Shown one piece after another: positions 1 to 22,337 of a stretch of 64,000 bases of DNA (positions are counted from its first letter, which is position 1; each line of letters begins with the position of its first letter). The translations under genes and the position numbers were made by a program. The notes beneath the pieces are model-generated. The model had not been told where the DNA came from and made no database searches. It worked only from the letters and a program-made list of their open reading frames with translations. Source of the stretch: Thermothelomyces thermophilus ATCC 42464 (lineage: Eukaryota > Ascomycota > Sordariomycetes > Sordariales > Chaetomiaceae); contig NC_016477.1 in NCBI RefSeq assembly GCF_000226095.1, positions 3,100,001 to 3,164,000 on the forward strand. Reading direction: 5' to 3'.

Positions 1-2234
1 GAAACAACGCCACCGTTATTTAAGGAACGAATAGACGGAACGCTACATTATAAAACGTAGATACCTATAGAAGACGATCTACTCGACTCGTTCCTAGAAT
101 GTTATATAATCTTTCGAGAAGAAAGGATTAACGAGGCATAGTATCAAGTAATACCCGGACTAGTAGTACCTGATGAAGTAAAAGAAAAAGACGGGAAACT
201 CTGGTACCGAGGTAAAGCGTATATCTACAATAAAGATCAATAGCTGCGAATGATTCGAGAACTCTATAAGTCGAAACTCGGAGGATACAAAGGAGTTACG
301 AAGACTGTCGTACAAGTTAAGAAACACTACGACTTTCCATAGTTAACGACACAAGTTAAGGAAGTCGTACAGAGCTATAATATCTGTAATCGAAGCAAAA
401 CGGCGCGATACAAGCCGTATAGGCTACTTCAGCTACTACTAATAGCCGACAAACTATAGAGTTTAGTTATGATAGACTTTATTATAAAGCTACCAGAATC
501 TAAGGACACGGCTATAGGGGTAATCTACGATAGTATTCTTACTATAGTAGATCGCCTGACTAAATGGATATACTTCTTTCCCTATAAGGAGTCCTAGATA
601 GCTAAACAGCTAGTAAATATAATCTATTGGCAAGTCGCATCAGTGTACGCTTAGCCACAGGAATAGATTACCGACAGAGATACCAAGTTCGCATTAAAGT
701 TCTGGCAAGCGTTAATGTAACGATTAGGCATTAATAGCAAGCTATTAACGGCATATCACCTACAGACTGACAGACAAACGGAGTAACTAAACTAAGTTAT
801 TAAGTAGTACCTCTGCTCTTACATTAACTATTAGTAAGACGACTAGGTCATGCTATTACTAATGGTATAACTCGCTTATAATATGATGCCAACGGAAACG
901 ACTAAAGTTATACCGTTCTTCGCGAACTATAGATATAAAGTAGACCTTAGGCAAGGACTAGAGGTTATAGTGCCGAGAGCAGTAGTCAAAGCAAAACAAA
1001 TGTACGTACTATACGAGAAGCTTAAAAACGAACTTGAGTTTGTCAGAACTAGAATAAAGAACTACTACGACAAACATAGGCTCGAGGGACCTCGCCTAGA
1101 GAGGGGAGACAAAGTCTATCTGGTTATACAAAACTTATGAACCAAATGACTAAGCACGAAGCTAGACTTTAAGAAGGTCAGACCCTTTATTATTAAAGAA
1201 CGAATTTCGACATCTAACTATCGACTATCGTTACTATTATCTATACGACTATAGATAGATGTTTTTTATATTTCACTTCTCGAACTAGTACTAAAAAACG
1301 CCAAGGTTGCTACGTATACCGAAGTAAAGGACAAAGAGAAAGAATAGGACGTCGAAGAAATTCTAGATTTATATATTATTAATGGGGAACTATAGTACCT
1401 AGTTAAGTAGCTCGATTTCGGACCGGAAGATAACTCATAGGAACTAGTCAAGAATTTGAACTGCCTTAAGAAACTAGAATAGTTCTATCGCCAGAACCCG
1501 GATCGACTATAGGCACTAGCTCGGACAAAATGGCCAAGTCGGCCTCCGACAAATCTAGGCCTAAAGAGGACTAGTCAAACGGGATGCTAGCACCCTAGGA
1601 CTGTATATTACTAATGACACGTGCCTTGGAATCCTGTAACCTCCGTTCTTCTGCCTCTATTTCCTCTAGAGACTATATGCCTCGACGAAAAAGCTCGGAA
1701 CCCTGCTTCTTTAAGAAACGTTTCTAGTGACAAAGATAAGCTAATCGACCGATAGCCGTCTAAAGTTAAGTTTGAAGAACGAAAAGGGCCTCTTTAGTAT
1801 TAGCCTCTTCTTATTCTATACGTTTTTATTTAGATATAATCTTTATCATTATAAAAAGATTAGCTACAAATATCAAGGTAATAACTAGGCCATGAACAAG
1901 CAGACGTTATATCGGAACTATCGTAAGAACGACCCCGACATATACACTCGCTATAGCAAGAAGAGCCTAACGCTATACGACAAGCCAAGTTCCGCTTGAA
2001 ACACTACGAACACGGTATAACGTCTACGCTAGAGGAATCAATAAAAGAAAAAAGCGCGGCGTGCTGTTAGGATTTCGAAGATCGGCGCTTAGAGATATAA
2101 TCTACTATCTTGTTAGCTACTAGCAGTGTAGAAAAAGGGGAAAACTGCGAGGTATACGTAGAAAAGGATATTGGCGCTATTTAAAACGACCTAAAGAGGG
2201 CTTTCGGGTCGAAAGCCTCAGAGGGAGGGTATCG
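1..2234 (+). mobile_element. Ty3/gypsy chromovirus copy A, internal part (left end off window), RIP-degraded
   Basis: Translation of the plus strand through many stops gives the 3' half of a gypsy polyprotein. An H2C2-type integrase zinc-finger region lies at about 240-420. The integrase core follows at about 460-860, with recognisable VDRLTKW, TDRDTKF and LQTDRQTE-like motifs. A C-terminal domain is still open at 883-1140, and a chromodomain lies at about 1345-1470 (DVEEILD, YLVK, GPEDNS). Stops are almost all TAG, replacing Gln (CAG) or Trp (TGG), including two stops where conserved chromodomain tryptophans are expected. That is the expected result of RIP acting on CpA on both strands. The element reads rightward into the LTR at 2235. 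Reverse transcriptase and gag are not in the window. It is non-coding today. The family call is firm; domain edges are approximate. Confidence 0.88.
1560..2190 (-). pseudogene. Antisense accessory ORF of gypsy copy A, Zn2Cys6-like, degraded
   Basis: Between the chromodomain and the LTR the sense strand shows no pol homology, but the minus strand reads as a damaged protein-like frame. At about 2028-1920 it gives Cys-x2-Cys-x6-Cys-x8-Tyr-x2-Cys-x6-Tyr, with a TAG inside the first pair. If the two Tyr codons (TAT and TAC) are RIP products of TGT and TGC, the spacing is that of a fungal Zn2Cys6 binuclear cluster. A charged stretch and a second Arg/Glu-rich segment follow toward 1560. Copies B and D carry a frame in the same place and orientation but with a more diverged sequence. 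Function is unknown; a DNA-binding regulator is an inference from the cysteine spacing alone. The frame edges are approximate. Confidence 0.5.
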
Positions 2235-2661
2235 TGTCACGGAAATATACATGTAGCTGCTGCCTAGGCCACTGACATAAACGGGCCAATCAAGCCAAAG
2301 AATGATAGACCAATTAGGACAGGATCACACTTAGCAAGAAATGATCCTAGCAGAGGATCACTGGCTCACGACGTGAGCCAGGTAAGCTAGTACGGAGGAT
2401 CACTACGACCGCTAGTGATCCTAGGATTATATATATATATAGATAGTCACTCGTTATAGTAGACTCTAGGAGTTTACTAGTGGTAACAATCACAATCATA
2501 GTACTCCTACCAAGCATTGCTAACTACTGTAAGAGACAACTCTAAGTGTTGTTATAAACCCTTTGGCTTCACCGAATCCCTTAGACGACCTGCCTGCCTG
2601 TCCCGCTCAATCTACCTTCGTCTGAACCCTTTTAGAAGAAGTCTGAGCTAGGTTCGTTACA
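2235..2661 (+). repeat. 3' LTR of gypsy copy A
   Basis: The LTR starts TGTCACG and ends GGTTCGTTACA (GGTTCGTCACA in the less mutated copy). It shares long blocks with the LTRs at 5295-5752, 9275-9692, 16405-16822 and 17656-18107, for example the stretch with TTGTTATAAACCCTTTGGC followed by CACCGAATCCC. Length is 427 bp. It is followed directly by the middle of the RNase H region of copy B, so A appears to have inserted into B. The matching left duplication would lie outside the window. Confidence 0.85.
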
Positions 2662-5294
2662 TTAAGGTAGAAACGGACGCTTTAGACTACGCTATTAGAG
2701 GACAATTAGGATAATAAGATAGACAAGGAAAGCTATATTCTATAGCCTTCTTTTTAAAGAAGCTCGATAGACTATATCTTAATTATCCGATCTATAACAA
2801 GGAACTATTTACGATTATCAAAGCTTTTAAGGAATAATAACTATACCTTAGTAGTACGATTAAACTAGTATAAGTATATATAGATTACAAGAACTTACGA
2901 TACTTTACGACGATAAAGGAGCTTAACGGATGACAAATACGATAGGCAAAATTCCTTATAGAATTTAACTTTAAGATCTACTATAAGAAGGGTAAAGAGA
3001 ACATATAAGCAGATATCTTAAGCCGACGAACGGATTATATAGAAGGACGAATAGAAATAATACTACTATTGTTTAAGGAACAAACAGACGGAACGCTATA
3101 TTATAAAACGTAGATACCTATAGAAGATGATCTACTTAACTCGTTCCTAGAGTGTTACGCAATCTTTCGAGAAGAAAGGATTAACGAGATATAGTATTAA
3201 GCAGCACCTAGACTACTAGTACCTAACGGAGTAGAAGAAAGAGATAGGAAACTCTAGTACCAAGGTAAAGTATATATCTACAATAGGGATTAATAGCTAC
3301 GAATGATTTGGGAACTCCATAAGTCGAAACTTAGAAGATATAAAAGAGTTACGAAGACTATTATATAAGTTAGGAAATACTATAACTTTCTATAGTTAAT
3401 GGTATAAGTTAAGGAAGTCATATAGAACTACGATATTTGTAATCGAAGTAAAATGGCATAATATAAGCCGTATAGGCTACTTTAGCCACTGCTAATAGCT
3501 AATAAACTATAGAGTTTAGTTATAATAAACTTTATTACAAAGCTACTAGAATCTAAGGATATAGTTATAGGAGTGACCTATAATAGTATTCTTACTATAG
3601 TAGATCGCCTAACTAAATAGGTATACTTCTTTCCCTATAAGGAGTCCTAGATAGCAGAATAGTTAACAGACGTAATCTATTAGCAAGTTATATTAGTATA
3701 TGCTTAGCTATAAGAATAGATTACCGATAAAGACACCAAGTTCGCGTCGAAGTTCTGGCAAGCATTAATGTAACGATTAGGCGTTAATAGCAAGCTATTA
3801 ACGGCATATTACCTATAGATTGACGGACAAATAGAGCGACTAAACCAAGTTATCGAGCAATATCTCTGTTCTTACGTTAACTACTAGCAAGATAACTAGG
3901 TCATGCTATTACTAATAGTATAACTCGCTTATAATATAACGCTAACGGAAACGACTAAAGTTACACCGTTCTTCGTAAACTATAAATATAAAGTAGACCT
4001 TAGGCAAGGACTAGAGGTTATAGTGCTAAGAGTAGCAGTCAAAGTAGAACAAATGTATATACTATATAAAAAGCTTAAAAAGGATCTCGAGTTTGTTAAG
4101 ACTAGAATAAAGAACTACTACGATAAATATAGGCTCGAAGGACCTTGCCTAGAGAGGGGAGACAAAGTCTACCTAATTATATAAAACTTATAAACCAAAC
4201 GACTAAGCATAAAGCTAGACTTTAAGAAGGTCAGACCCTTTATTATCAAAAAACGAATTTCGATATCTAACTACTAACTATTATTACTATTATCTATATA
4301 ACTATAGACGAATGTTTTTTATATTTCACTTCTCGAACTAGTACCAAAGAACGCTAAGGTTACTATATATATCGAAGCAAAGGATAAAGAGAAAGAATAG
4401 GACGTTGAAGGGATTCTAGATTTATATATTATTAATAGAGAACTATAGTACCTAGTTAAATAGCTTAATTTTAGACTAAAAAATAACTTATAGGAACCTA
4501 TTAAGAACCTAAATTACCTTAAGAAACTAAAGTAATTTTACTAGTAGAATCCTAACCGGCTATAAAAACCGGCTTTAAAGCCTATTCCCCGATAGAAAAA
4601 GAGGGGAACCTGCTAGAATTAGGACTAGGATCTAACCCGATCAACTTCTAATCAAGTATATCAAAAGCACCTAACGCCTAAGCCTAACCCGTGAGGGTCT
4701 ACGTCTCCGATATCGGCAGAGGAGTATCTAGCTCTTCCTCCTCCTCTAGACGAGCTATATTACGACGAAAAACTTCGGTACTATAATCGTATAGGGATTG
4801 CTATAAATGACGTAATTGACTTAAATGGCTTAATGTCTAAGCAAGTAACGCCTTGGTCTTAGTAATCTCCCTTAAAACCTTCTCTTGCTCTGACAAATTC
4901 GAAAGGACTAAGATAATTAGTAACCTAAGACTACGAAGAAAAATAATAAAGAACTTATAGATATCTATAACGTTTAGATTACTATACTTTTTACCTATAT
5001 AAATATAGTTTTAATATTTATTTAAACCCTCTATTATTATATAATACTTTTATAGCTTCGTATTCTAATAACGCTTGTAAGGTATAGTGACTTTGTAACC
5101 CTCTTACTTAATCTTAATTGTAATAGCGTGTTATTCGCGTTTAAAATTACGACGATTCCTAGGAATATAATTAGCTATAGCAAAAGGAAGTTAACAGAAG
5201 AAAGACGTTACCTACTAGGAAAAGGGGGTATTAGTAGTACTTAAAACAAGTCATAAGAAGCTTTTAGGTCAAAAGCCCTAAAGAGAGGGCATTA
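2662..5294 (+). mobile_element. Ty3/gypsy chromovirus copy B, RNase H to 3' end, RIP-degraded
   Basis: The plus strand starts inside an RNase H domain (VETDALDYAI, then a YNKELFTIIKAFKE-like segment, IDYKNLRYFTT, ADILSRRTDY up to about 3040). It continues through the integrase zinc finger (about 3290-3460), the integrase core (about 3520-3910), the C-terminal domain (to about 4190) and a chromodomain (about 4380-4560). It is homologous along its whole length to copies A and D, and more heavily mutated than A: TA-rich, with frequent TAG stops. The upstream part of pol is missing because copy A sits at its left edge. The element ends in the LTR at 5295-5752. Confidence 0.87.
4590..5270 (-). pseudogene. 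Antisense accessory ORF of gypsy copy B, degraded
   Basis: The minus strand here is colinear with the antisense frame of copy D (about 9790-10400 on plus). It has the same order: a basic N-terminal region, a Tyr-x2-Tyr pair followed by further Tyr residues where copy A has Cys, then a leucine-rich, probably helical stretch, then a run of Glu encoded by GAG/GAA repeats near 4735-4750. It is the same reading frame as in D but carries more stops. No function can be assigned beyond the Zn-cluster-like spacing described for copy A. Confidence 0.45.
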
Positions 5295-5752
5295 TATTAT
5301 AAGCTAACTATATACCGCGACCCGGTAGGGTATAGTAGGCTAAAGAAGCCACTAATCAAGAAGGGTATAAAGCGAGGCTGACATAGGATCGCTAGGGAGC
5401 ACGGGCTACCACGGGCGAATAATTGCCAAAAAGGGAAAGATAGCGGAGGATAGCTAGCTACTGAAGGCGATCTAAGGACAGGATAGAAGGAGACTATAAG
5501 CGATCGACAGAAGTATATATACATATAAATAGTCACTCGTTATGGTAGACTCTAGGAGTTCACTAGTGATAGCAACCCTTATAATCACAGTACTTATACC
5601 AAGCATCGTTGTTGACTACTGTGAGGGACAACTCTAGTGTTGTTATAAACCCTTTGGCTTCACCGAATCCCTTAGACGACCTGCCTGCTTATCCTGCTTA
5701 ATCTACCTTTGTCTAGACCTTTTTAGAAGAAGTCTAAGTTAGGTTCGTTATA
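5295..5752 (+). repeat. 3' LTR of gypsy copy B (458 bp)
   Basis: This is homologous to the other gypsy LTRs. Its start TATTAT aligns with TGTCAC and its end GGTTCGTTATA with GGTTCGTCACA; all of these changes are C-to-T or G-to-A. Like the solo LTR at 17656-18107, it carries an extra segment of about 30 bp (around the words ATAATCACAGTACTTATACC) that the LTRs of copy D lack. It abuts the start of the copia element C. Confidence 0.85.
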
Positions 5753-8700
5753 AAACCTTATTAGGGGGATTATCTAGGTGCTTTACTCTATACTTATACT
5801 ATCTGTTGTAATGCTCTATATAATAGTTACTATGTAATATATAACTAGTCTTGACGTAGCTAAGCGTTTAAGAGTTAATCTATAGCGCTAGATTTGTGAC
5901 TTTAATGTCGCCTTCTAGCAAGCTATCTAATATAATATCCTAGAAGTATAGGGTATATAAGGACTTTACGCCTTTCTTAACGCTATCGCTATATATATCC
6001 TATTAACCTAGGTAATAAATAAGAGGATAGAAATCGAGCTCGCTAATGGTATAGGATAGCCACTTCTAGAGCTTAGTACCCTCGTTATAATAGCCGAGAT
6101 CCTAATTAATAATGATATGTAACCTAGAGTCTCTCGGAAGTATAGAATACTCTCGACAACTTATATACTAATACTTCCTATAGCTTAGAAGAGCAGTAAG
6201 GAGAGAGGTAGAGACTCGTGTAGAGACTCTTATAGCGGTTAGCAACGTAATATAAGATGTCTCTATAAGCGTCTAAGATATCTATAGGATCTAATAGACT
6301 GCTACACCGTTAATATAGTAACGAGTAACGCTCGTACCTTTCTAACAAGGAGTATAAGAGGATTTACTAGAAGCTTGACAAGCTAAAGTAGGCTAGATTG
6401 AAAAATTAACTTATCGCTAAGTAGGGGGAGCTATCCTATTCTAGGTAGTCAGGGGCAGGATACCCTAGTTCCCTTAATACGTTAATTATTAGCCCTTAAC
6501 TACTTAGTAAGCTCTTAACTTACTATAGGGCATTTAGTATAGTTACTCTATAGCGTTATCCTCTTTTAGAAAGTACTCTATTAGACTTATATAGTATGAC
6601 CTACTTAGTTAACGATAAGAAGTTCCTTTTACTAGGGACGTTTGTTAAGGTAGAAAATCTTAAGTTTGTCAAAGTAGGTATAATAACCTTTTCTATTAGT
6701 AGGAGGGGTACTTAGGTAATTGAGAACGTTCTAAATAGACTATATCGACTACGTACTAAGAGCCTAATACTTAAGGATATTACTATCGTCGAAGGATTCT
6801 ATATTAATATTATCTTAGAAGCTCTATTACTTAAGGCAGGCGTTTGATACTATAGCTTAGATTATTTACTACGTTTCGGAACATTAGAAAATAACATTAT
6901 CCTTCGGAAGTTAGAATATAGGTATAATCTTACCTTCCTCGAATATAAGCTACTTTCCTACTACTTAAGCTTCCTAGACTATGTCTTAATTAGTAAAGCA
7001 GGTATTATAAACGTTTATATATCCTTATAGAACGTATTTACTATATATAGTGGAAAGTCCTAGATATAAGCGTCACCTACTATAAGAGAGGATACTAAGG
7101 ATCTTTAGTACTTAAGAGCTAGCTACCTTAGACTAGAAGCGTTAAAAGCGCTTATTAATAACGCTAGAAACGTCTATATTAAGGGGACAGCGCGTATTAA
7201 GTACAAGAGCTATACTCGTACTTATATAAGCAAGGTTATCTCTAGGAAAACACTACCTAAATAGAAGTCGGCATACCTATTCTAGTAAGTAGCCTAGGAT
7301 CTATTTGACTATTCTAAAGCGATTAATAAATCGTAATAACTACTTATAATTATTAACGAGTATAGTAGGAAGCTCTTCCCTTTCCTCTTAATAATAAAGT
7401 CATTAGATTAGATTATAGGAGTTATCTAGAATTTCGAGAACTAGGTAAGACGCTAATATAGGCTCGCTATCTACAAGATTAAGTAGGATAACGATACTAT
7501 GACAATTAGTTTAGCAGGGCGCGTACCGACACGTTACCAGACTTAGGCTATAGAAAGCGGTATTGATCTTAAACTCTTACCTTCGTATACCTATAAGCCT
7601 AACAGACTAGTAGAGCAAGTAAGGTAAGAGCTAATCTTATACTTAATTAAGATGCTTAATAGCGTAAATCTACCTACGAAGCTCTAGTTAGAAAGCGTAT
7701 AAGCGGTAGCGTACTTATATACGATAAGCCTAAGCTATACTTACTCGTTTAGAACTCCTAACGAAGTGCTTTATAGCTAGTTTAAATAGTATTTTTGTTA
7801 ATACGAATCTAGCTTAACAATTATATGAACTAGCGACTTATACCTAGACTAGAGTAGCATCTTTATATATAGATACTAGGTATATATTCTCTATAAGGAT
7901 AGGGAAGCTAAGTAATATATAAAGGACTTTAAGATACTACTATATAGGCTAACAAGGTATCTTATAGGATATCACGTATCTAATATCTATTGCATTTAGA
8001 TACCTAAGCTCGACAAGGTTATTATAACTTGTAATATTCGCTTTAATAAGAAGACTTTCTACTATCTAGGCAAAGAGTAACCGATAGAGTCGTCACTAGT
8101 AGTAGCAAGCCAGGAAGTCAATTAGTTCGATCTTAGCAAAGATTCCTAGGATACCGACTTTCTCTAGGAAGCGTTATAATAGACCTAATAACTAGTAAAA
8201 GACTCTATTACAGTGGCTTAGCTACCTCTATCGTAAGAGAGTCTAGTAGTAGACTAACCTCTCTAATAGGGTTAAGACTTAGGGGTAAGGAAGCTCTCTG
8301 ACACGTAGCCTATAAGCGAGCAATTAATTCTAGAGACTCTTATAGCAGAGACGTAAGTAATAGACGAACTTACCAAATAGATAGAGAGCTTTAGAGGACT
8401 CTTGACCCCTGAATATATGCCTAAGCCCTCGGTGACTTGCCTTACGCTAGCTAGTAAAGGGGATATCTACTAGGAAGTAGGAAGGTTTGAATTAGGGCCT
8501 TCCTAGTCGTTAGCTGGCTAACTAGATGCTAGGGAGAGTAGGGGAGCCGTTGAATCTGACGGAGGAATACCTTCTATAGAAGAATCTAGCGTACGTAATA
8601 AGTAGATAGAAGAGCTAGGAGCTAGGGGCGGTACTACTGATATATCGTACCTAGCTAGGCTAGAAGAGTAGAGCGTTAAGCGAAGTCTAGATTAGCTAAC

Positions 8701-9274
8701 GTATCCTTTAGAAGGTAGAAGTAAAGGAAAAGCTATTTAGCAACCTCCTATAAGGAAAGGCAGAGGCAAGAGGAGGGCTTATAAGCCTAGGGACCCTATC
8801 TAGTTAAGCGAAAGGCTATAAAATAAGGAGAGGGTTAATTATTATTACTCCTTTATCTATATAACTAAGGAATACTAGCGATAGTTCTATAAGACTTACC
8901 TACCTAATTAATAGAAAGCTTATCTAGAGGACTAGAGTATAAGAATAATATATATAGTGTTTGCTACTACTATACGATAGAAGGATACTATATGCCTTAA
9001 AGCAGCCTTAAATAAGCTACATTAATATATTAACGATCTTACTTATGTTTCTACTAACTAGAGAGACCTATATAATTACTTATTAGAATAATAGTTCAAA
9101 GATGTAGCTTACAAGAAAATATATAACTTAGAGAGTAAAGGAATATAGAAGATCGTACTATACAAGCAGGCAAAAGTATAACCTATCCTATTAAAATAGG
9201 TCTTCGTATATAAGTTTGATAAGGACGGTTTCTTAGAGAAGTACAAGGTAAGGATCTATATATAAGGAGATCTA
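5753..9274 (+). mobile_element. Ty1/copia element C, part 1 (gag, protease, integrase, start of RT), RIP-degraded
   Basis: The plus-strand frame, read through stops, shows the copia domain order. A gag-like region lies at about 5.8-6.5 kb. An aspartic protease region follows near 6.6-7.0 kb (segments such as GFYINI and EYKLLSYYLSFLDYV). The integrase lies at about 7.1-8.0 kb (IDEYSGKLF, then IKQDN in the core). A low-homology linker precedes the start of reverse transcriptase near 8.9-9.27 kb (KFDKDGFLEKYK). The RT is cut by insertion of gypsy element D after the bases ATCTA and resumes at 16823. No copia LTR is evident at the left end, where the LTR of gypsy copy B adjoins. Confidence 0.82.
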
Positions 9275-9692
9275 TATGACGAACCTAACTCAGACTTCTT
9301 CTAAAAGGGTTCAGACGAAGGTGAATTAAGTGGGACAAGCGTACAGGTCGTCTAAGGGATTCGGTGAAGCCAAAGGGTTTATAACAACACTAGAGTTGTC
9401 TCCTATAGAAGTTGCTATCACTGGTGAACTCCCGGAGTCCACTATAGCGAGTGACTATCTACATGTATATATACTTCTGTCGATCGCTTATGGTCCCCTT
9501 CTATCCTGTCCTTGGATTGCCTTTGGTAGCTAGCTATCCTCCGCTATCTTTCCCCTTTTGGCAATCGTTCGCTCGTAGTAGCTAGCGCTCCCTAGCGATC
9601 CTATGTTAGCCTCGCTTCGTGCCCTTCTTGATTGGTAGCTCATTTAGCCTCCTGTACCCTACCAGGTCGCGGTATATAATTAGCTTGTGATA
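9275..9692 (-). repeat. 3' LTR of gypsy copy D
   Basis: In window orientation it runs from TATGACGAACC to GTGATA. Aligned by eye with the other LTR of the same element (16405-16822) it has the same length, and all differences I can see are C/T or G/A transitions, so the two ends have diverged by RIP rather than by ordinary substitution. It is preceded by the target duplication ATCTA at 9270-9274. Confidence 0.92.
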
Positions 9693-9789
9693 CGATGCCC
9701 CCTCTTTAGGGCTTTCGACCCGAAAGCTTCTTATGACTTGTTTTAAATACTATTAATACCCCCTTTTCTTCTCCCTATAGGTAATGTCC

Positions 9790-10400
9790 CTCTTCCGCTA
9801 GCTTCCTTCTATTATAGCTGATTATGTTCCTAGGAACTGTCGTAATCTTAAGCGTAAATGATACGCTATTACGATTAAGATTAAGCGAGAGGGTTATAAG
9901 GTCACTATACCTTATAAGCGTTATTAGAATACGAAGCTATAAAAGCGTTATATAATAATAGAGGGTTTAAATAAATATTAGAACTATATTTATATAGGTA
10001 AGAAATATAGTAGCCCAAACGTTATAGATATCTATAGGTTCCTTACTATTTCCCTTTATAGTTCTAGGTTACTAACTATCTTAGTCCTTTCGAATTTGTC
10101 AGAGTAGGAGAAGGTTTCGAAAGAGATTACTAAGACTAAAGCGCTTCTTACTTAGATACTAAGCCGTTTAAGTCGATTATATCGTTTGTAGCAATCCTTA
10201 CGCGATCGTGGTACCGAGGTTTTTTGTCGTAGCGTAGCTTGTCTAGAGGAGGAGGAAGAGCTAGATACTCCTCTGCTAATATCGGAGACGCAGACCCTTA
10301 CGGGTTAGGCTTAGGCGTTAGGTACTTTTGACGTGCTTGATTGGGAGTTAATTAGGTTAGATCCTAGTCCTAATTTTGGTAGGTTCCCCTCTTTTTCTAT
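9790..10400 (+). pseudogene. Antisense accessory ORF of gypsy copy D (zinc-cluster-like), degraded
   Basis: On the strand opposite to gag-pol, between the 3' LTR and the chromodomain, a long frame can be followed through a few TAG stops: a basic segment (RNCRNLKRK, then ITIKIKREGYKVT), then Tyr-x2-Tyr-x8-Tyr-x8-Tyr-x2-Tyr-x6-Tyr at about 9909-10000, then a helical leucine/serine stretch, then an acidic run (EEEEELDTP) near 10240-10275. The Tyr codons are TAT or TAC, one transition away from Cys. The placement matches the antisense frames of copies A and B. It could be an intact regulatory protein in undamaged family members. That is inference; the frame itself is seen. Confidence 0.55.
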
Positions 10401-13400
10401 TAGGGAATAGGCTTTAGAGCCGGTTCTCGTAGCTAGTTAGGATTCTACCGGTAGAATTGCTCTAGTTTCTCGGGGCAACTTAGGTTCTTAACTAGTTCCT
10501 ATAAGTTATCTTCTAGTCTAAAATCAAACTATTTAACTAGATATTATAGTTCCCTATTAATAGTATATAAATCTAGAATTTCTTTAACGTCTTATTCTTT
10601 CTCTTTGTCCTTTACTTCGATATATATAGCAATCTTAGTATTCTTTGGTGCTGGTTCGAGAAGTGAAATATAAAAAATATCTGTCTATAGTCGTATAGAT
10701 AATGGTAACGATAGTCGGTAGTTAGATGTCGAAATTCATTCTTTGATAACGAAGGGTCCGACCTTTTTAAAGTCTAGCTTCGTGCTTAGTCGTTTGGTTT
10801 ACAGGTTTCGTACGATTAGGTAAACTTTGTCTCCCCTCTTTAGGCGAGGTCCCTCGAGTCCATGTTTATTATAGTAGTTCTTCATTCTAGTCCTGACAAA
10901 CTCGAGTTCCTTTTTAAGCTTCTCGTGTAGTACGTACATTTGTTCCGCTTTAACTACTGCTCTTGGCACCGTGACCTCTAGCCCTTGCCTAAGGTCTGCT
11001 TTATATCTATAGTTTGTAAAGAACGGTGTAACTTTAGTCGTTTCTGTTGGCGTTATATTATAAGCAAGTTGTGCTGTTAGTAATAGCATGACCTAGTCGT
11101 CTTACTAGTAGTTAACGTAAGAATGAAGGTATTACTTGATAACTTGGTTTAGTCGTTCTGTTTGTCTATTAGTCTGTAGGTAATATGCCGTTAATAGCTT
11201 ACTATTAATACCTAATCGTTATATTAATGCTTACTAGAACTTTAATACGAACTTAGTGTCTCTGTCGGTAATCTATTCCTATAGCTAAGCATATACTAAT
11301 ACGACTTGCTAATAGATTACGTCTACTAGCTATTTAGCTATCTAGGACTCCTTATAGGGAAAGAAGTATACCTATTTAGTCAGGTGATCTACTATAGTAA
11401 GAATACTATCGTAGATTACCCCTATAGCCGTATCCTTAGATCCTAGTAGCTTTGTAATAAAGTCTATTATAACTAAACTCTATAGTTTGTTAGCTATTAG
11501 TAGTAGCTAAAGTAGCCTATATAGCTTATATTGTGCTATTTTACTTCGATTGCAGATATTATAGCTCTATATAACTTCCTTAACTCATATTGTTAACTAT
11601 AGAAAGTCGTAATGTTTCTTGACTTGTGCGATAGTCTTCGTGACTCCTTTATATCCTCCGAGTTTCGACTTATAGAGTTTTCGAATTATTTGTAGCTATT
11701 GATCTTTATCGTAGATGTACGCTTTACCTTGGTACTAAAGTTTCCTATCTTTTTCTTTCACTTTATTAGGTACTACTAGTCTAGGTATTACTTAATACTA
11801 TGCCTTATTAACCCTTTCTTCTCGAAAGATTATATAACATTCTAGGAACGAGTCGAGTAAATCGTCTTCTACGGGTATCTATATTTCGTAATATAGCGTT
11901 CCGTCTATTCGTTCCTTGAATAATAGTAGCGTTGTTTCCGTTCGTCCTTCCGTATAATCCATTTGTCAGCTTAAGGCATCCGCTCGTGCGTTCTCTTTAC
12001 CCTTCTTGTAGCGGATCTCGAAATTGAATTCCGTAAGGAATTCTGCCTATTGTATTTGTCGTCTGTTAAGCTCCTTTGTCGTTATAAAGTATTGTAAATT
12101 CTTATAATCTATATATACTTATACTAGTTTAATTATATTACTAAGGTATAGTTGCTATTCCTTAAAAGCTTTGATAATCGTAAGTAGTTCCTTATTATAG
12201 ATTAGATAATTAAGATATAATCTATCGAGCTTCTTTAAAAAGAAGGCTATAGGATATAGCTTCCCTTATTTGTCTTATTATCCTAATTGTCCTCTGATAG
12301 CGTAATCTAAAGCGTCCGTTTCTACCTTAAATGGCTTCTTAGGGTCTAGTAGCACTAGTACTAGATCTTTAGTAATGGTATCGCGGATCTATGTAAATGC
12401 TTACTCGTATTGCTCTTCCTATTAGAATTTAGCGTTCTTCTTAGTAAGTTTATATAAAGGTCGTACGATCGCTCTAAAGTTCCTAATAAACATCCAATAA
12501 AAGTTCGTAAACCCGATGAAACTTCGTACTTCCGTAATTGACGTTGGTCGTGGCTAATCCTTAATGGCTTCGACCTTTGAAGGTTCTATCTAGATTTATC
12601 CTAGGGATATCTTGTATCCTAAAAACACCGTCTTCCTAATGTAGAATTCGCTCTTTTTCTTATTAACTAATAGCTTATACGCGTATAACGTATCTAATAT
12701 TACTCTTACGTACTTCTAGTGTTCGTCTATCGTTTTAGAGAAGATAAGTATATCGTCGAGGTAATATATTGTAAATTTGTCGAGAAAGGATCGGATAGCT
12801 TGATTAATTAGGGCTTAGAACGTTACTAGTACGTTTGTAAGTCTAAATAGCATAATAAGGTACTCGTAATAACTATAGGGTGTCCTAAAGGCCGTCTTCT
12901 ACTCGTCGCCTTCTTTAATCTATATATAGTTTTAGGCCGATAGCAAGTCAAGACGTATAAAATATTAGGCTCCTGCTAACTAATCTCGGAGCCGTGAGAT
13001 TAGCGGTAACGGGTATCGGTTTTTTATAGTCTATTTGTTAAGTTGCTAATAGTCGACGTATAACCGTAGCTTTCTATCTTTCTTAGGCATAAATAGGATT
13101 AGGTAGCCTACTAGCAATGTCAATAGGCAGATATATTCTCTTTAAAGATTCTCTTTTAAATATCACTTAAGTTCTTCATTCTATGTCTAGCTTATATAGT
13201 AAATCTTAAAGAACTTTAGTTATACTCCTTCCTTAAGCTTAATCTTATAATCCTATAGGCCGTGTTCTGGTAATCCTTCTAGATACTTCGGTTTGAATGT
13301 TAAGTGTCCTTTGTATTCCTTCGGTACTTTCCTAGTCTTGTCTCGTTTCTCGATTTTCTAATAGTATATAAACTTGGTTCCGTCTATAGCGATGCTAGCG

Positions 13401-16404: not shown

Positions 16405-16822
16405 TGTGACGAACCTAACTCAGACTTCTTCTAAAAGGGTTTAGACGAAGGTGAATTAAGCGGGACAAGCGTATAAGTCGTCTAAGGGATTTGGTAAAGC
16501 TAAAGGGTTTATAATAATACTAGAGTTGTCTCCTATAGAAGTTACTATCACTAGTGAACTCCCGGAGTTTACTATAGTAAGTGACTATCTATATGTATAT
16601 ATACTTCTATCGATCGCTTATAGTTCCCTTCTATCCTGTCCTTAGATTGCCTTTGGTAGCTAGCTATCCTCTGCTATCTTTCCCCTTTTGGTAATCGTTC
16701 GCTCGTGGTAGCTAGCGCTCCCTAGCGATCCTATGTCAGCCTCGCTTTGTGCCCTTCTTGATTGGTGGCTCATTCAGCCTCCTGTGCCCCACCGGGTCGT
16801 GGTATATGGTTGGCTCGTGACA
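16405..16822 (-). repeat. 5' LTR of gypsy copy D
   Basis: In window orientation it runs from TGTGACGAACC to CTCGTGACA, so the sense LTR begins TGTCACGAG and ends GGTTCGTCACA, with TGT...ACA ends as expected for a gypsy LTR. This copy has kept the least mutated termini in the window and defines the element borders. The target duplication ATCTA follows at 16823-16827. The sense internal region begins at 16404 reading leftward, with the gag ATG 82 bases further at 16323. Confidence 0.92.
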
Positions 16823-17655
16823 ATCTATAAGATATTAGCTTAATGCAAAGTACATATATAGCTACTCTAGTGGTATAGTCGTTCTATATAATAATAGCGA
16901 TTGCTATATACTTTGGCCTAGAAGTTAAGTAGTTCGATATAGTGTAAGCATTCCTTAATGCTAAATGACCGGAAGACGATCTTATTGTCCACGAATTACT
17001 AGAAGGATTTAAGTAGCCAGGGAAATGCGTAGAGTTATGAAGAGCTCTATATGGCCTAAGAGACTTGCTACTCTTATAGTATAAAGAGTTCTATAAAACG
17101 CTATCAGATCTAGGTATAGAACTATTAGGCAAAGAGAAGTACCTCTTCTTAAGCTATAATAAAGGCATTATCCTGATCTTCTATATCGACGATTTCTTGG
17201 TTTTCTTCCATAAAAGTAACGCTATAGCGGCCGAGCTAGTAATAGAAGGAATTAAAGCTCGATATAATGTCTATAAGTAAGGTAATATCAATTAGTTCCT
17301 TGGTATTAGGGTGATTCGAGACCGACCTACATATAAGATATAGCTAGTCTACGACTAATATATTAGAAAGGTAGTAAGAAGATATAGGCTAGATATGCCT
17401 AGTATGTATAAGCTGACTCCCTTAAGCTATAAAGAACTTAAGAAGTTTAAAGGGAGCGCTACTAGTATATAGATCAAAGAGTATTAAGAGCTTGTTAGAT
17501 TAATCCTATACTACGTAGTTATATTACATCTAGACATTATATATACCTATTTCATACTCTCTCAATACCTAACTAACCTAGGACTAGACTACTTGTTAGA
17601 GGTATAGCAAGTAGTAAGATATCTATTTAGGAGCTCTTACCTATCAATCTAATAT
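16823..17655 (+). mobile_element. Ty1/copia element C, part 2 (RT)
   Basis: The copia RT resumes exactly after the right LTR of element D. The plus frame gives FGLEVK, FLNAK, PEDDLIVHELLEGFK, ALYGLRD, the catalytic segment ILIFYIDDFLVFF near 17170-17215, and then FLGIRVIRD and SQYLTN. The YIDD/YVDD-type catalytic box and the LEGF and YGLRD motifs are diagnostic of Ty1/copia. TAG stops interrupt it. It is cut again by a solo gypsy LTR at 17656. Confidence 0.88.
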
Positions 17656-18107
17656 TATAACGAACCTAACTTAGACTTCTTCTAAAAGGGTTTAGACAGA
17701 GGTAAATTAAGCAGGACAAGCGTACAGGTCGTCTAAGGGATTCGGTAAAGCTAAAGGGTTTATAACAACACTAGAGTTATCTCTCACAGTAGTCAGCAAT
17801 GCTTGGTATAAGTACTATAATTATAGGTTACTATCACTAGTAAACTCCCAGAGTCCACTATAATAAGTGATTATTTATATATATATATACTTCTGTCGGT
17901 CGCTTATAGTCCCCTTCTAGCCTGCCCTAGGATCGCCTTTAGTAGCTAGCTATTCTCTGCTAATCTTCCCTTTTGGCAATTATCCGCCCGTGGTAGCCCG
18001 CGCTCCCTAGCGATCCCGTGTCAACCTCGCTCTGTGCCCTTCTTGATTGGTGGCTCGTTTAGCCTGCTGCGCCCCACCGGGTCGCGGTATATGGTTGGCT
18101 CGTGACA
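17656..18107 (-). repeat. Solo gypsy LTR with 5-bp target duplication, inside copia element C
   Basis: In window orientation it runs from TATAACGAACC to CTCGTGACA (452 bp) and is flanked on both sides by AATAT (17651-17655 and 18108-18112). No internal gypsy sequence adjoins it, so it is a solo LTR left by recombination between the two LTRs of a fifth family insertion. It carries the longer LTR form shared with copy B (about 34 bp longer than copy D). Confidence 0.9.
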
Positions 18108-18689: not shown

Positions 18690-19634
18690 CTACTATTATT
18701 AGCCATTGCCAGGATTAATAGCCTTGCCTTTGCCTTTATCCTAGCCAGGTAACGACATAGCGTCTAACGTATTATTGGGCGCACTAATACGAGCATTATA
18801 AGCCTCCTTGATCTTGCCTAACTAGTAAAAGATATTATATATAGAGTAGGCGATCTTCATAAAACGCGCGAGTTTAGCCTTATTAAGTTCGTACTCCTCT
18901 ATATTATCTATACCAGTATGTTTTAGGTCACTCCAAAGGACTATACGTAACTTCTTAAGATCTTATATGTAACTATTAGCGATTTGCCTACGTATTAGGG
19001 GTAGAGGTTTAGGATCTAGGGACTTATAGAAGCCTTAGCTCTATCTAGTAGAGCCTTCGTTAAATCCTTTGCTAACCTGACACAAGAAGTAAGATTACCG
19101 TTATAGTTAGTATAAGTATTACAAGAGCTATCAGACGTGTAAGCGATTAGCGTATATCTCCTTATACTTATAGAAACCATGGGTATAATGGTAGTAGCAG
19201 GAGCTAGCGCTAGAATGATCGCGACATTCGCCGAAAGAACGTCCTACTAGAGCCGACCGTATATATATTCTGTAGGGCACCTTGCAAAGCTCGCCAGCTT
19301 TGATGTCGCTATATTTAGTTAGCTTGAACGATCTAGACGTGACTAGCAAAGCGCTAGAAGCTATGACAGAGTCGTTATTAAATTAACTAGAAGAAGCCGA
19401 ACTATACAAACTTGCTTGAATCGCTAGAATCGCTAGAAAACTACAAAACCGGCAATAAAATCAATCGAACAGAGATAATAGGAACACTTACGGTTTGGAG
19501 GCTGGTTTGGAAGCTTTAGCGCGCTTACGCTTTCGAGGTGTTACGGGAGCAGGAGTCGACCTGCTAGTAGTGGCAGTGTTCGCGACGGGCGTACCCGACG
19601 AGTCATCCGTTGATTCGAGTGTAGGAGGCGTCAT
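18690..19634 (-). pseudogene. RIP-eroded host-like gene at the edge of the AT-rich block
   Basis: The minus strand has an intact GC-rich first exon, 19634-19492, starting MTPPTLESTDDSSG and ending in a basic segment RKRKRAKASKP. A canonical GTAAGT donor follows (19491) and a TTGTAG acceptor ends at 19441. Downstream the frame is AT-rich and interrupted: SFKLTKYSDIKAGELCKVPY and FGECRDHSSASS between 19349 and 19131, then KKLRIVLWSDLKHTGIDNIE and INPGNG toward 18.7 kb. I do not recognise the family. The Cys/His content (GELC, GECRDH, SSCYYHY) hints at a metal-binding segment. One end lies outside the mutated isochore and keeps normal composition. It could also be part of a further, unrecognised transposon. 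Confidence 0.45.
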
Positions 19635-22337
19635 TCTGTTGTTGTTGTTACGATTGAAACTGGTGATACTGTCGCTACTACGACTACAATGGCTATATTT
19701 GATCTATAGCTTCAAAGGAATCGCTCTACCATACTCGACTCTTTCAGACTTCCGAATACGGAAGGCAGGCCCCCTGAAGGAGCCATCGAGGTAAGAGCGA
19801 CAAAGGACACAACACCAAGAACAGTATCACCACAAAGCGTAGTTAAACGACTATCGCCTTCAACTAGGGGGTGTGTCGGAAGCTGTAGAGCTTCCAAGCG
19901 TATTAGCCACGCGTTTGCCACAGCTGTATAAGGCTGTTCAACGCATTGGCCAGTCCCTTTATCTATAAATACCACTCGTTTTGTCTCCTTTGTAGATAGC
20001 TTTAACAAGGCACTGTCTCCTTCGTACAGCCACCCACTGCAGACTGCTTTCAACGCTCCCGGAGCTCCCACTGCGTTCGGCAGTCATGGATGTAGCTTGT
20101 TGGGCGCTCACTCGCTTGGCGGGATGGCCGAGGCGCTGATGCCCGAAGGATCGCACAACGGGCCTTCCCCAGGCCTCTCCTTGTTAGCGTAGGTAACCCT
20201 CACGCATCGCCGCATCGCCGCAGCAGCCGAGCCTGTTGGTCTCCATGCTGGTCGCCGCTTTTAGCACCGTTCGGCCAGCAAAATAACTTGGTTGAGGCGC
20301 GTGTAAGATTCAGACGCCCTCTCCGCTGTTTCCTTCCCGGAGCGGCAGTGCTGCCTGAAAAAGTGTCGTCACGTACTTGCCCGCCCATGCCCATAAGCAT
20401 GATAAGTTTCGAGCACAATGATTTGCGAAACAAGCGCCGAGGACCTGCCTCACAGCAAAAGCATGCGCCAGGTGATAAGTCACTCACTACTTTACCTAAT
20501 TGTAGTTACGCGGTATGCGCAGTTCTTGTGAGCCTGCACCTAGCGGCGCTCACCCCCAAGCATCAGAACTCCCCGTTGGCTCCTTGCTGCCCTCCTTAAG
20601 GCTGCTTTAGCAACACGTCCAGGATGGTTTATAGAGGGAGCAGTGCCTCGCGTTGTCCAGTTCAGGAAAACAGCCCATCGGGGCGCCAAGGCGTTGGATT
20701 GCATGTGGTTGATGATGGCTAATCTCACACCCGGCTGCCTTCTTCCAAGTAGTGTAATAAGCATACCGCTTATTGTGCCCACCAAGTCTGTAGATGGCTA
20801 GCATGATTCATCAGGAATCCAACAGGGTGCAAGAGCGGCAAGTGTCGGGGGATGGTAAACCGAGCAGCACATAAGAAACGTGCTCTTCACCAGAAGTATT
20901 CCAGCCCGTGCAAGGAGATAGAGCGTTGGCCTAGCCCCGGAGATCTCTTGTTCGCCATCAAAGAGACCGCTCAAGGGATTGACTCTCTTACACCACCCCC
21001 TCCCCCATTCCCTTTTCCCCCCTTCCCCCCCTTCCCCCCTTCTGCTCCCCCCTTGTGCCCACCTTCAGCGATCTGACTTGTAATGTAGACATGGGACATG
21101 GTGACAGTCCGGGTCTCGAACCTGCATCTTGACTTCGCCCCAGAAAACAGGAGGTGGAGGGGCGTCCAAAATGCGCAAAAGCACCGCCCCTTGTCTCCCG
21201 GGCATTACACTACACTAGGTGCTAGTGGAGCACCGGCACAGTGCCGTGCGTTGAGGGCTGCGACGACGATCAGGGATAGGTCCGCCCGCTCGACAGCAAG
21301 CAGCGCAGCAAGTGGGCACATCCTTGGAGCGTTTGCCTTTTGGTTGTCATGGATGGGCTCTCAAAAGCATCATTGAAAAAAGGACAAAATGGTGGGGGCG
21401 AAGAGGTCGCCGAGGCTCTAGTTAATTCAATAGTGTCCCAGCGCGTCGTTCCATCATGACAACCTAATAATCTTGGGCGAGAAGAACACATGCAACAACA
21501 GCCTCCCTATTATACTCGTACAGACAGCGAGGACACCTGTAAGACCGGTGCCCCCCCGCAGCAAAAAGGAGAAAGGAGCGCGACCTTGACGTTCCATTCC
21601 CGGAAACCCGGTTCCAGTGGCCTACTCCGCGGCGGGCCTTAGCGGCGAAATCAAGCGACGCTCGAGATTTTGCTGGGATACCGCCGCTTGCTGCTCCGGC
21701 TTTCTCTCTACCCCTCCTCCATCCCTCCCACTCGCGATGGCCGATGGGGCACGAGAAGTATTTGCGGCCACACACGCCGTACGCTGCATTCAAGATTGAT
21801 CACCATGCCACTTTTGGAGTAGAGCGGATACCCTCAAGGAAAGGATCCCTTTTCACTTTTGTCCATGCTTTCCCCCTTTTCCACGCTCGCGGCACTTTGC
21901 CGGCCTGTCACCTCGTTGTCGTCCCCCGCTCGTTATTCCTGCCCAACCGCGTGGCCAGCGGACGGCTGCCCTTAGTCGCTTGCTAGCTTGCTTCGAGTCG
22001 CAGATCGCATTGGCCTGCTCCTACGGGGCGGCGGGCGACGGGAAGTGGGTAAGAAAGATGTGGGAACATGATCAGGAGCGAATTACTGAGAAAAAAGAAA
22101 AGGGAATGTGGAACACCATGTGCTACCTGTAGCACGCTGGTCCTTGATTGATGTGCCCCGAAGCTTGGTAAGGTCGGTGGCTGCTAGACTAGCGCAATCA
22201 AACTGCCTGCACACTTGTTTACAACCAATCTCGCAAAAGCGAAAAGGTTCGAAGATTTGATCAGAGAGGGTCGAAAAAGAATGAGAAAAATAAAAGAATA
22301 CAAAAGAATACAAAAAATGCAAAAGAAAAGAAAAGAA

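What the first reader, a model, noticed from the sequence alone, without database searches (positions are those of the whole stretch)
1560..10400. Chromovirus family with a conserved antisense Zn2Cys6-like ORF between chromodomain and 3' LTR
All three gypsy copies (A 1560-2190 minus, B 4590-5270 minus, D 9790-10400 plus) carry, opposite to gag-pol, a degraded frame in the same place. In copy A it shows Cys-x2-Cys-x6-Cys-x8-(Tyr)-x2-Cys-x6-(Tyr), the exact spacing of a fungal binuclear zinc cluster once two TGY-to-TAY transitions are allowed. In B and D six aligned Tyr codons occupy a similar pattern (D: x2, x8, x8, x2, x6). A retrotransposon carrying its own antisense transcription-factor-like gene could control its own promoter or host silencing. 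Copies A and D look like diverged versions, so the ORF has persisted through family evolution. The frame and position are seen; function and intact state are inferred.
Basis: partly seen in the sequence, partly recalled or inferred. Interest (0 to 1): 0.85.

Follow-up and report, generated by a model that had tools for sequence, protein, structure and literature searches.

The report
Antisense zinc-cluster gene in fungal retrotransposons
Retrotransposons in this fungal genome carry, on the strand opposite their own genes, a real intron-containing gene for a small protein that looks like a fungal zinc-cluster DNA-binding protein, and relatives of that protein occur in other fungi.

Summary
The antisense frame is a genuine gene wrecked here by RIP. 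Across own-genome copies the six motif codons are almost only Cys or its RIP product Tyr: C-x2-C-x6-C-x8-C-x2-C-x6-C in A-type, x2,x8,x8,x2,x6 in D/B-type. Of six frames only this one holds such a motif. In the aligned part of the exons every stop column is open in some copy, so the 'broken at non-RIP sites' test does not refute the gene.

Beyond the finding: an intron lies exactly 8 codons after the sixth Cys, same phase in both families, and the gene's 3' end overlaps the chromodomain end of pol. Of 7994 scored proteins, 174 are relatives at E<=0.001; each Cys is kept in 118-119 of 120 aligned.

Limits: Pfam Zn_clus stays below its cut-off, the canonical loop-1 lysine is missing, fold matches are weak, and zinc binding, DNA binding and antisense RNA are untested. 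Antisense accessory genes are known (brtn of Boty). The zinc-cluster character and conserved intron did not turn up in ten literature searches. Control of its own LTR is plausible but unproven.

The parts
1448..2108 (-). Copy A antisense gene: start codon place 2108-2106 (ATA here; ATG in 16, ATA in 14 of 30 copies), exon 1 2108-1898, exon 2 1848-1448
   Evidence: relatives P0001, P0002, P0004
1849..1897 (-). Intron of copy A (48 bases plus one extra T here, which makes the frame shift in this copy)
   Evidence: the stretch is absent from relatives P0001, P0002, P0004; most listed own-genome matches of P0001 begin at residues 67-71, the exon-2 start
1923..2012 (-). Six-cysteine cluster of copy A (codons with first base at 2012, 2003, 1982, 1955, 1946, 1925; reads C C C Y C Y)
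4501..5178 (-). Copy B antisense gene (all six motif codons read Tyr), intron place about 4958-4908
9814..10491 (+). Copy D antisense gene: start codon place 9814-9816 (ATA here), exon 1 9814-10033, exon 2 10085-10491
10034..10084 (+). Intron of copy D (51 bases; GT..AG in lightly mutated copies, branch-like GCTGAC/GCTAAC)
   Evidence: the gene model P0013 of the same genome is 17 codons shorter at this place
9913..10008 (+). Six-cysteine place of copy D (9913, 9922, 9949, 9976, 9985, 10006; all Tyr here)
10370..10491 (.). Tail-to-tail overlap of the antisense gene with the end of pol (minus strand, chromodomain end) in copy D
   Evidence: read
9277..9694 (-). 3' LTR of element D, about 120 bases from the antisense start
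   Evidence: the query 9275-9768 matches 16407-16820 at 91.5% over 414 bases
2235..2662 (+). 3' LTR of element A, about 125 bases from the antisense start
1165..1512 (+). pol end of element A (integrase SH3-like part and chromodomain)
   Evidence: below both cut-offs in A; the same part of three lightly mutated D-type copies matches PF00385 at E about 1e-12

Best explanation
The chromovirus families in this genome carry an accessory gene of their own on the strand opposite gag-pol, between pol and the 3' LTR. It encodes a protein of about 200 residues: a basic N-terminal helix, a binuclear zinc-cluster-like module, then a roughly 90-residue helix that would dimerise it as a coiled coil. Shown: the gene is real, conserved, intron-containing and was ruined here by RIP. 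Inferred: it is transcribed from a promoter in or next to the 3' LTR reading inward (the start lies about 120 bases from the LTR), spliced, and imported into the nucleus, where the dimer binds DNA. Having no recognisable activation domain, it most likely represses or tunes sense transcription from the LTR, or anchors element DNA to chromatin. The antisense intron survives retrotransposition because its splice signals are not read in the sense genomic RNA.
For: Gene: Cys/Tyr codons at the six places; in the aligned part of the exons no column with stops in every copy, once the lightly mutated copies are counted; ATG or ATA at the start; motif only in this frame, 0 of 2000 shuffles. Relatives: Parathielavia hyrcaniae P0002 59% over 78%, Canariomyces notabilis P0004 48% over 84%; 174 proteins at E<=0.001 among 7994 scored; each Cys in 118-119 of 120 aligned. 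Intron: same phase and 8 codons after the sixth Cys in A and D types; first two bases GT in 15 of 30 and 11 of 43 rows and AT in all others, last two AG in 24 of 30 and 40 of 43; one gene model of this genome splices it. In A-type copies all 3 indel columns after the start lie in the intron and none in the aligned exons. Place: LTR on the 5' side in 74 of 74 loci (72 distinct places), pol end on the opposite strand beyond the 3' end in 73 of 74. Fold: AlphaFold2 mean pLDDT 88.2, pTM 0.54. HAP1 (three entries), PUT3 and Pho7 are 5 of the 6 entries listed by the second structural look, Ppr1 1 of 3 for the D type. hhalign against eight canonical clusters of this genome: E 5.1e-4 over all six Cys.
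Confidence: 0.5

Rival explanations
1. The protein is real but is not a transcription regulator: it is a nucleic-acid chaperone or nuclear-import and tethering factor for the pre-integration complex, working with the chromodomain.
For: Long predicted helix and basic N-terminus, missing canonical recognition lysine; no activation or fungal transcription factor domain over its Pfam cut-off in 18 relatives tried; the gene sits next to the pol end in 73 of 74 loci.
Against: The six-Cys spacing is that of DNA-binding clusters and most of the zinc-protein rows in the weak structural lists are DNA-binding domains.
Confidence: 0.25
2. The antisense transcript matters as RNA: pairing with sense RNA it yields dsRNA and small RNAs that restrain the element, and the protein is secondary.
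For: Antisense TE transcripts with possible regulation are reported in Blumeria (PMC10648671, passages) and dsRNA is proposed for plant antisense ORFs (PMC7264820, passages).
Against: Protein-level conservation of six Cys in 118-119 of 120 proteins and, in A-type, indels in intron and leader but not in aligned exons point to a selected protein.
Confidence: 0.1
3. A recently captured host zinc-cluster gene, carried as passenger.
For: The genome holds many zinc-cluster genes (88 Zn_clus matches).
Against: Two diverged families share gene, place and intron; many candidate copies; each of the 72 distinct places fetched is linked to an LTR. Matches that were not fetched were not checked for linkage.
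Confidence: 0.05
4. Chance frame in RIP-biased DNA: TGY to TAY makes Tyr-rich frames that mimic aligned cysteines.
For: Only Tyr is seen at the six places in window copies B and D.
Against: 0 of 2000 shuffles, one frame of six; natural relatives with the same motif.
Confidence: 0.01

Closest known systems
brtn, the additional antisense gene of Boty-like retrotransposons of Botrytis cinerea (Zhao et al. 2011, Virology; paper not held, known here from its title and from passages of PMC7264820, PMC8365987, PMC4227169, PMC5987419)
   Same: Fungal Ty3/gypsy element whose pol has a chromodomain (PMC4227169); antisense gene between pol and 3' LTR (PMC7264820). A Botrytis cinerea protein (P0097) belongs to the family found here.
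   Different: Whether P0097 is BRTN, and whether the 2011 paper saw cysteines or an intron, could not be checked.
Plant antisense ORFs between pol and 3' LTR: Grande gene23, RIRE2, Retand, PvRetro13 (PMC7264820, passages)
   Same: Same place and orientation; nuclear localisation reported for gene23; an SMC-like (coiled-coil class) region reported for PvRetro13 ORF2.
   Different: Otherwise that review reports no clear similarity to other proteins for them; here a zinc-cluster-like module is recognisable.
Unplaced 'additional ORF with unknown function' in fungal or plant Gypsy elements (PMC2864245, figure-legend passage)
   Same: A further reading frame beside gag-pol in chromodomain elements.
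   Different: The passage gives neither strand nor domain; no kinship tested.
Fungal Zn(2)-Cys(6) binuclear cluster proteins (Gal4 class; HAP1, PUT3, Ppr1)
   Same: Six Cys with canonical spacing in A-type; cluster followed by a long helix; weak fold matches.
   Different: Below the Pfam cut-off, loop-1 lysine missing, loop 3 more basic, no fungal transcription factor domain over its cut-off.
HBZ of HTLV-1 (recalled; the review mentions the antisense promoter in the HTLV 3' LTR)
   Same: Works-like analogy: antisense regulator gene started near the 3' LTR of a retroelement, coiled-coil dimer.
   Different: bZIP, not zinc cluster; no kinship claimed.

Membership tests
Fungal Zn2Cys6 cluster (PF00172) | C-x2-C-x6-C-x5-12-C-x2-C-x6-8-C spacing (recalled consensus), A-type and wider family | tested here: met
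   113 of 120 aligned proteins have a readable motif; 108 of these fit (56 have 2,6,8,2,6; 29 have 2,6,9,2,6), 3 have a longer last loop (9), one has 2,7,7,2,6 and one, the D-type, 2,8,8,2,6
Fungal Zn2Cys6 cluster (PF00172) | Same spacing, D/B-type of the window | tested here: not met
   loop 1 is x8
Fungal Zn2Cys6 cluster (PF00172) | Score over Pfam's curated cut-off (21 bits) | tested here: not met
   Best 18.4 bits (P0008) among 8 proteins; best 16.4 bits among 10; no Zn_clus row for six window or locus copies
Fungal Zn2Cys6 cluster (PF00172) | Conserved lysine at loop-1 place 4 | tested here: not met
   8 of 8 canonical clusters of this genome against K/R in 9% of 112 family members
Fungal Zn2Cys6 cluster (PF00172) | Cluster fold | tested here: inconclusive
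Fungal Zn2Cys6 cluster (PF00172) | Binds two zinc ions and DNA | not testable with these tools
   needs purified protein
Antisense additional ORF between pol and 3' LTR (brtn-like, aORF-3R) | Antisense to gag-pol, next to pol's end and the 3' LTR | tested here: met
   LTR on the 5' side 74 of 74, pol end opposite 73 of 74; own genome only
Antisense additional ORF between pol and 3' LTR (brtn-like, aORF-3R) | Kept through family evolution, not a one-copy transduction | tested here: met
   202 and 417 first-look DNA candidates, 40 of each scored; two diverged families with a shared intron place
Antisense additional ORF between pol and 3' LTR (brtn-like, aORF-3R) | Sequence kinship with BRTN itself | not tested
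   BRTN sequence not at hand; a Botrytis cinerea protein is in the family (P0097)
Antisense additional ORF between pol and 3' LTR (brtn-like, aORF-3R) | Own antisense transcript | not testable with these tools
   no RNA data held
Chromovirus (Ty3/gypsy with chromodomain) | Chromodomain at the end of pol | tested here: met
   PF00385 E about 1e-12 in 3 of 3 lightly mutated D-type copies tried; window A only 14.9 bits against a cut-off of 25.1, B and D no Chromo row at E 0.1

The most novel reading that the evidence does not exclude
Ascomycete chromoviruses have long carried their own antisense-encoded, spliced, dimeric zinc-cluster regulator, of a subclass whose basic face has moved from the first to the second cysteine triad. 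It binds the element's LTR and sets the balance between sense transcription and silence, as a fungal counterpart of HBZ. Its antisense intron is a mark that the gene is expressed from the opposite strand yet inherited through sense RNA.
Probability: 0.33. Interest if true: 0.8.

Novelty: new variant of a known kind. Interest (0 to 1): 0.62.

Why it matters
Antisense accessory ORFs of LTR retrotransposons are described as having unknown function and mostly no recognisable kin (PMC7264820, passages). A conserved six-cysteine module, a long helix and intact natural relatives turn the question of what these genes do into a bench question for one class. It may also explain a set of orphan 'Zn(2)-C6' hypothetical proteins in fungal annotations as retrotransposon products. 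The intron gives a simple test for antisense expression in RNA reads that already exist.

Tried and rejected
Rejected: chance frame in RIP-biased DNA (and the relatives). Rejected: a frameshift that kills A-type copies; both indels shared by several copies lie in the intron.

Led nowhere: Pfam and NCBIfam labels. Searches gave only matches below cut-off, among them Zn_clus itself, coiled-coil families, and for P0012 DUF3716 at 15.7 bits against a cut-off of 22. IMG/VR scan: 12 pattern matches, none a relative. Foldseek against PDB. PDB sequence search: PUT3 at E 0.97 and a ribosomal protein at 0.78 only. Codon-position test on transversions: too few columns. A-type exons 7 of 495 columns against intron plus leader 3 of 165, no difference; D-type exons 12 of 529 against 10 of 95, fewer in exons. 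CGG/CCG triplets in the 560 bases before the start: 8-12 in 8 loci, against about 17 expected by my own reckoning at 50% G+C, so no support for LTR sites. The first copy alignment mixed strands and was thrown away; one search replaced it.

Literature: ten searches. No listed title or abstract start joins a zinc cluster to an antisense retrotransposon ORF. I saw passages of nine papers; the other listed papers were not opened. The 2011 brtn paper is not held, so its content is unknown to me.
Full report
What was checked. The window lies at C6:3100001-3164000 of a 38.74-Mb, 7-contig genome. Two annotated proteins of Thermothelomyces thermophilus ATCC 42464 (P0012, P0013) match it, P0012 at 100%, so that is taken to be the genome. 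Bases 1 to about 19,500 are AT-rich with RIP-type dinucleotide bias: TpA/ApT 1.4-1.9 against 0.73 in 22-60 kb. Three elements A, B and D carry the antisense frame on minus, minus and plus strand.

The frame in many copies. DNA searches of the whole genome gave 202 (D-type) and 417 (A-type) first-look candidates; 40 of each were scored and 30 of each fetched. In 30 A-type copies the six motif codons are only TGY or TAY: TGY in 28, 26, 17, 2, 12 and 4 of 30, all six in one copy. The spacing is C-x2-C-x6-C-x8-C-x2-C-x6-C. In the first 31 D-type rows (30 loci plus B) the third place was Tyr in all, and three columns inside the gene (codons 49, 178, 220 of the aligned stretch) were stops in every row read. 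With 12 lightly mutated loci added (43 rows), all six places show Cys (16, 15, 10, 23, 12, 14) and 7 rows hold all six. Codons 49 and 178 then read TGG and CAG in 6 rows each, and codon 220 reads Gln in 4 of 8 such loci. The added rows were found with P0012 and P0013, so they are biased to less mutated copies; two repeat fetches, L079 and L080, were left out. A fourth all-stop column (codon 7) lies 5' of the start. In A-type no column within the aligned exons is a stop in all copies; the last 36 codons of A-type lie outside that alignment. The motif exists in one of six frames in each family and in 0 of 2000 shuffles, with loop 1 allowed x6-x9 for D-type. The start codon is ATG in 14 and ATA in 29 of 43 D rows, ATG in 16 and ATA in 14 of 30 A copies. 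TGG to TAG, CAG to TAG, TGY to TAY and ATG to ATA are single transitions in contexts RIP prefers (established knowledge).

An intron. In 17 of 30 A-type copies, window A among them, the frame changes between the cysteines and the coiled coil through single-base insertions, each of the two main ones shared by several copies. Relatives P0001, P0002 and P0004 run straight from ...VASA to LTK..., lacking that stretch. The A-type stretch is 48 bases without the insertions. Its first two bases are GT in 15 and AT in 15 of 30 copies, its last two AG in 24, AA in 5 and GG in 1. D-type has 51 bases at the same place: GT in 11 and AT in 32 of 43, AG in 40 and AA in 3. The annotated P0013 is 17 codons shorter than the DNA at this place. 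In both types the intron is phase 1, eight codons after the sixth Cys. All three A-type indel columns after the start lie in the intron, eight more lie 5' of the start, and none in the aligned exons. In D-type two rows have insertions in the intron, one row has a three-base exon insertion and one a two-base exon gap near the 3' end. What looks like read-through of the same intron is visible in natural relatives P0019 and P0049 (by eye).

Place. In 74 of 74 fetched loci (72 distinct places) a match to the LTR proper lies on the 5' side of the gene (one search had used queries with some leader). In 73 of 74 the pol end lies on the opposite strand beyond its 3' end; L052 differs. The loci were found through the antisense region itself, so these counts do not say how many elements lack the gene. 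In lightly mutated copies the pol end matches Chromo (PF00385) at about 1e-12 in 3 of 3 tried; the window copies themselves are too damaged. The antisense stop lies inside pol, a tail-to-tail overlap of 122 bases in D (10370-10491), read. The antisense start is about 120 bases from the LTR edge, so a promoter in the LTR is likely (inference).

Relatives. An alignment of seven A-type copies found 11 proteins, among them Parathielavia hyrcaniae P0002 and Canariomyces notabilis P0004. Six D-type copies found 5. A second round, in which only the 7994 candidates sharing most words were scored, found 174 at E<=0.001, of which 120 are listed. In an alignment of 120 of the 128 gathered proteins (fragments and exon-2 models left out) each Cys is kept in 118-119, and the motif is readable by pattern in 113. 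The A and D antisense proteins are 36% identical (P0012 against P0001), while two A-type pol ends are 70 and 72% identical to that of window D: the accessory gene seems to evolve faster.

Mechanism. Shown: a conserved, intron-bearing antisense gene. Strongly suggested: a dimeric six-Cys protein. Inferred: nuclear DNA binding and control of LTR transcription, repression being more likely because no activation domain is recognisable. My estimates: gene real 0.97, zinc-cluster fold 0.85, DNA binding 0.55, control of own LTR 0.35-0.4.

Known. Antisense extra genes at this place are known: brtn of Boty (title and citing passages only) and plant ORFs whose function is unknown (PMC7264820, passages). 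PMC5987419 (passages) reports a Monilinia transcript similar to truncated Pol and BRTN. New here, as far as ten searches of an open-licence library and passages of nine papers can tell: the zinc-cluster character, the conserved antisense intron, the breadth of the family and the two spacing types.

Noticed in passing
window 1-5752: Element A looks inserted in the pol gene of element B: A's 3' LTR ends at 2662 and B's pol sequence follows directly, repeating from 3054 what A shows at 1-300.
   Followed up: partly
window 5753-9275 and 16822-17655: A copia-like RIPed element (reverse-transcriptase-like motif by eye at about 17190; a 66-residue piece gave no Pfam match) seems to be split by element D, whose LTRs are 91.5% identical and are flanked by the same 7 bases ATCTATA.
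   Followed up: partly
window 17656-18105: A further LTR of the B/D type without an adjoining element seen, a likely solo LTR.
   Followed up: no
whole genome: The two families differ in damage: 3 of 150 scored D-type matches have the P0012 stretch free of stops, while the seven best A-type matches spanning the whole gene have 11-17 stops each; the families may differ in age or RIP exposure.
   Followed up: no
The antisense protein seems to diverge much faster than the pol end it overlaps (36% against about 70-72% identity between A and D types).
   Followed up: partly
window about 19000-20000: Sharp boundary between RIPed AT-rich DNA and GC-rich genic DNA.
   Followed up: no
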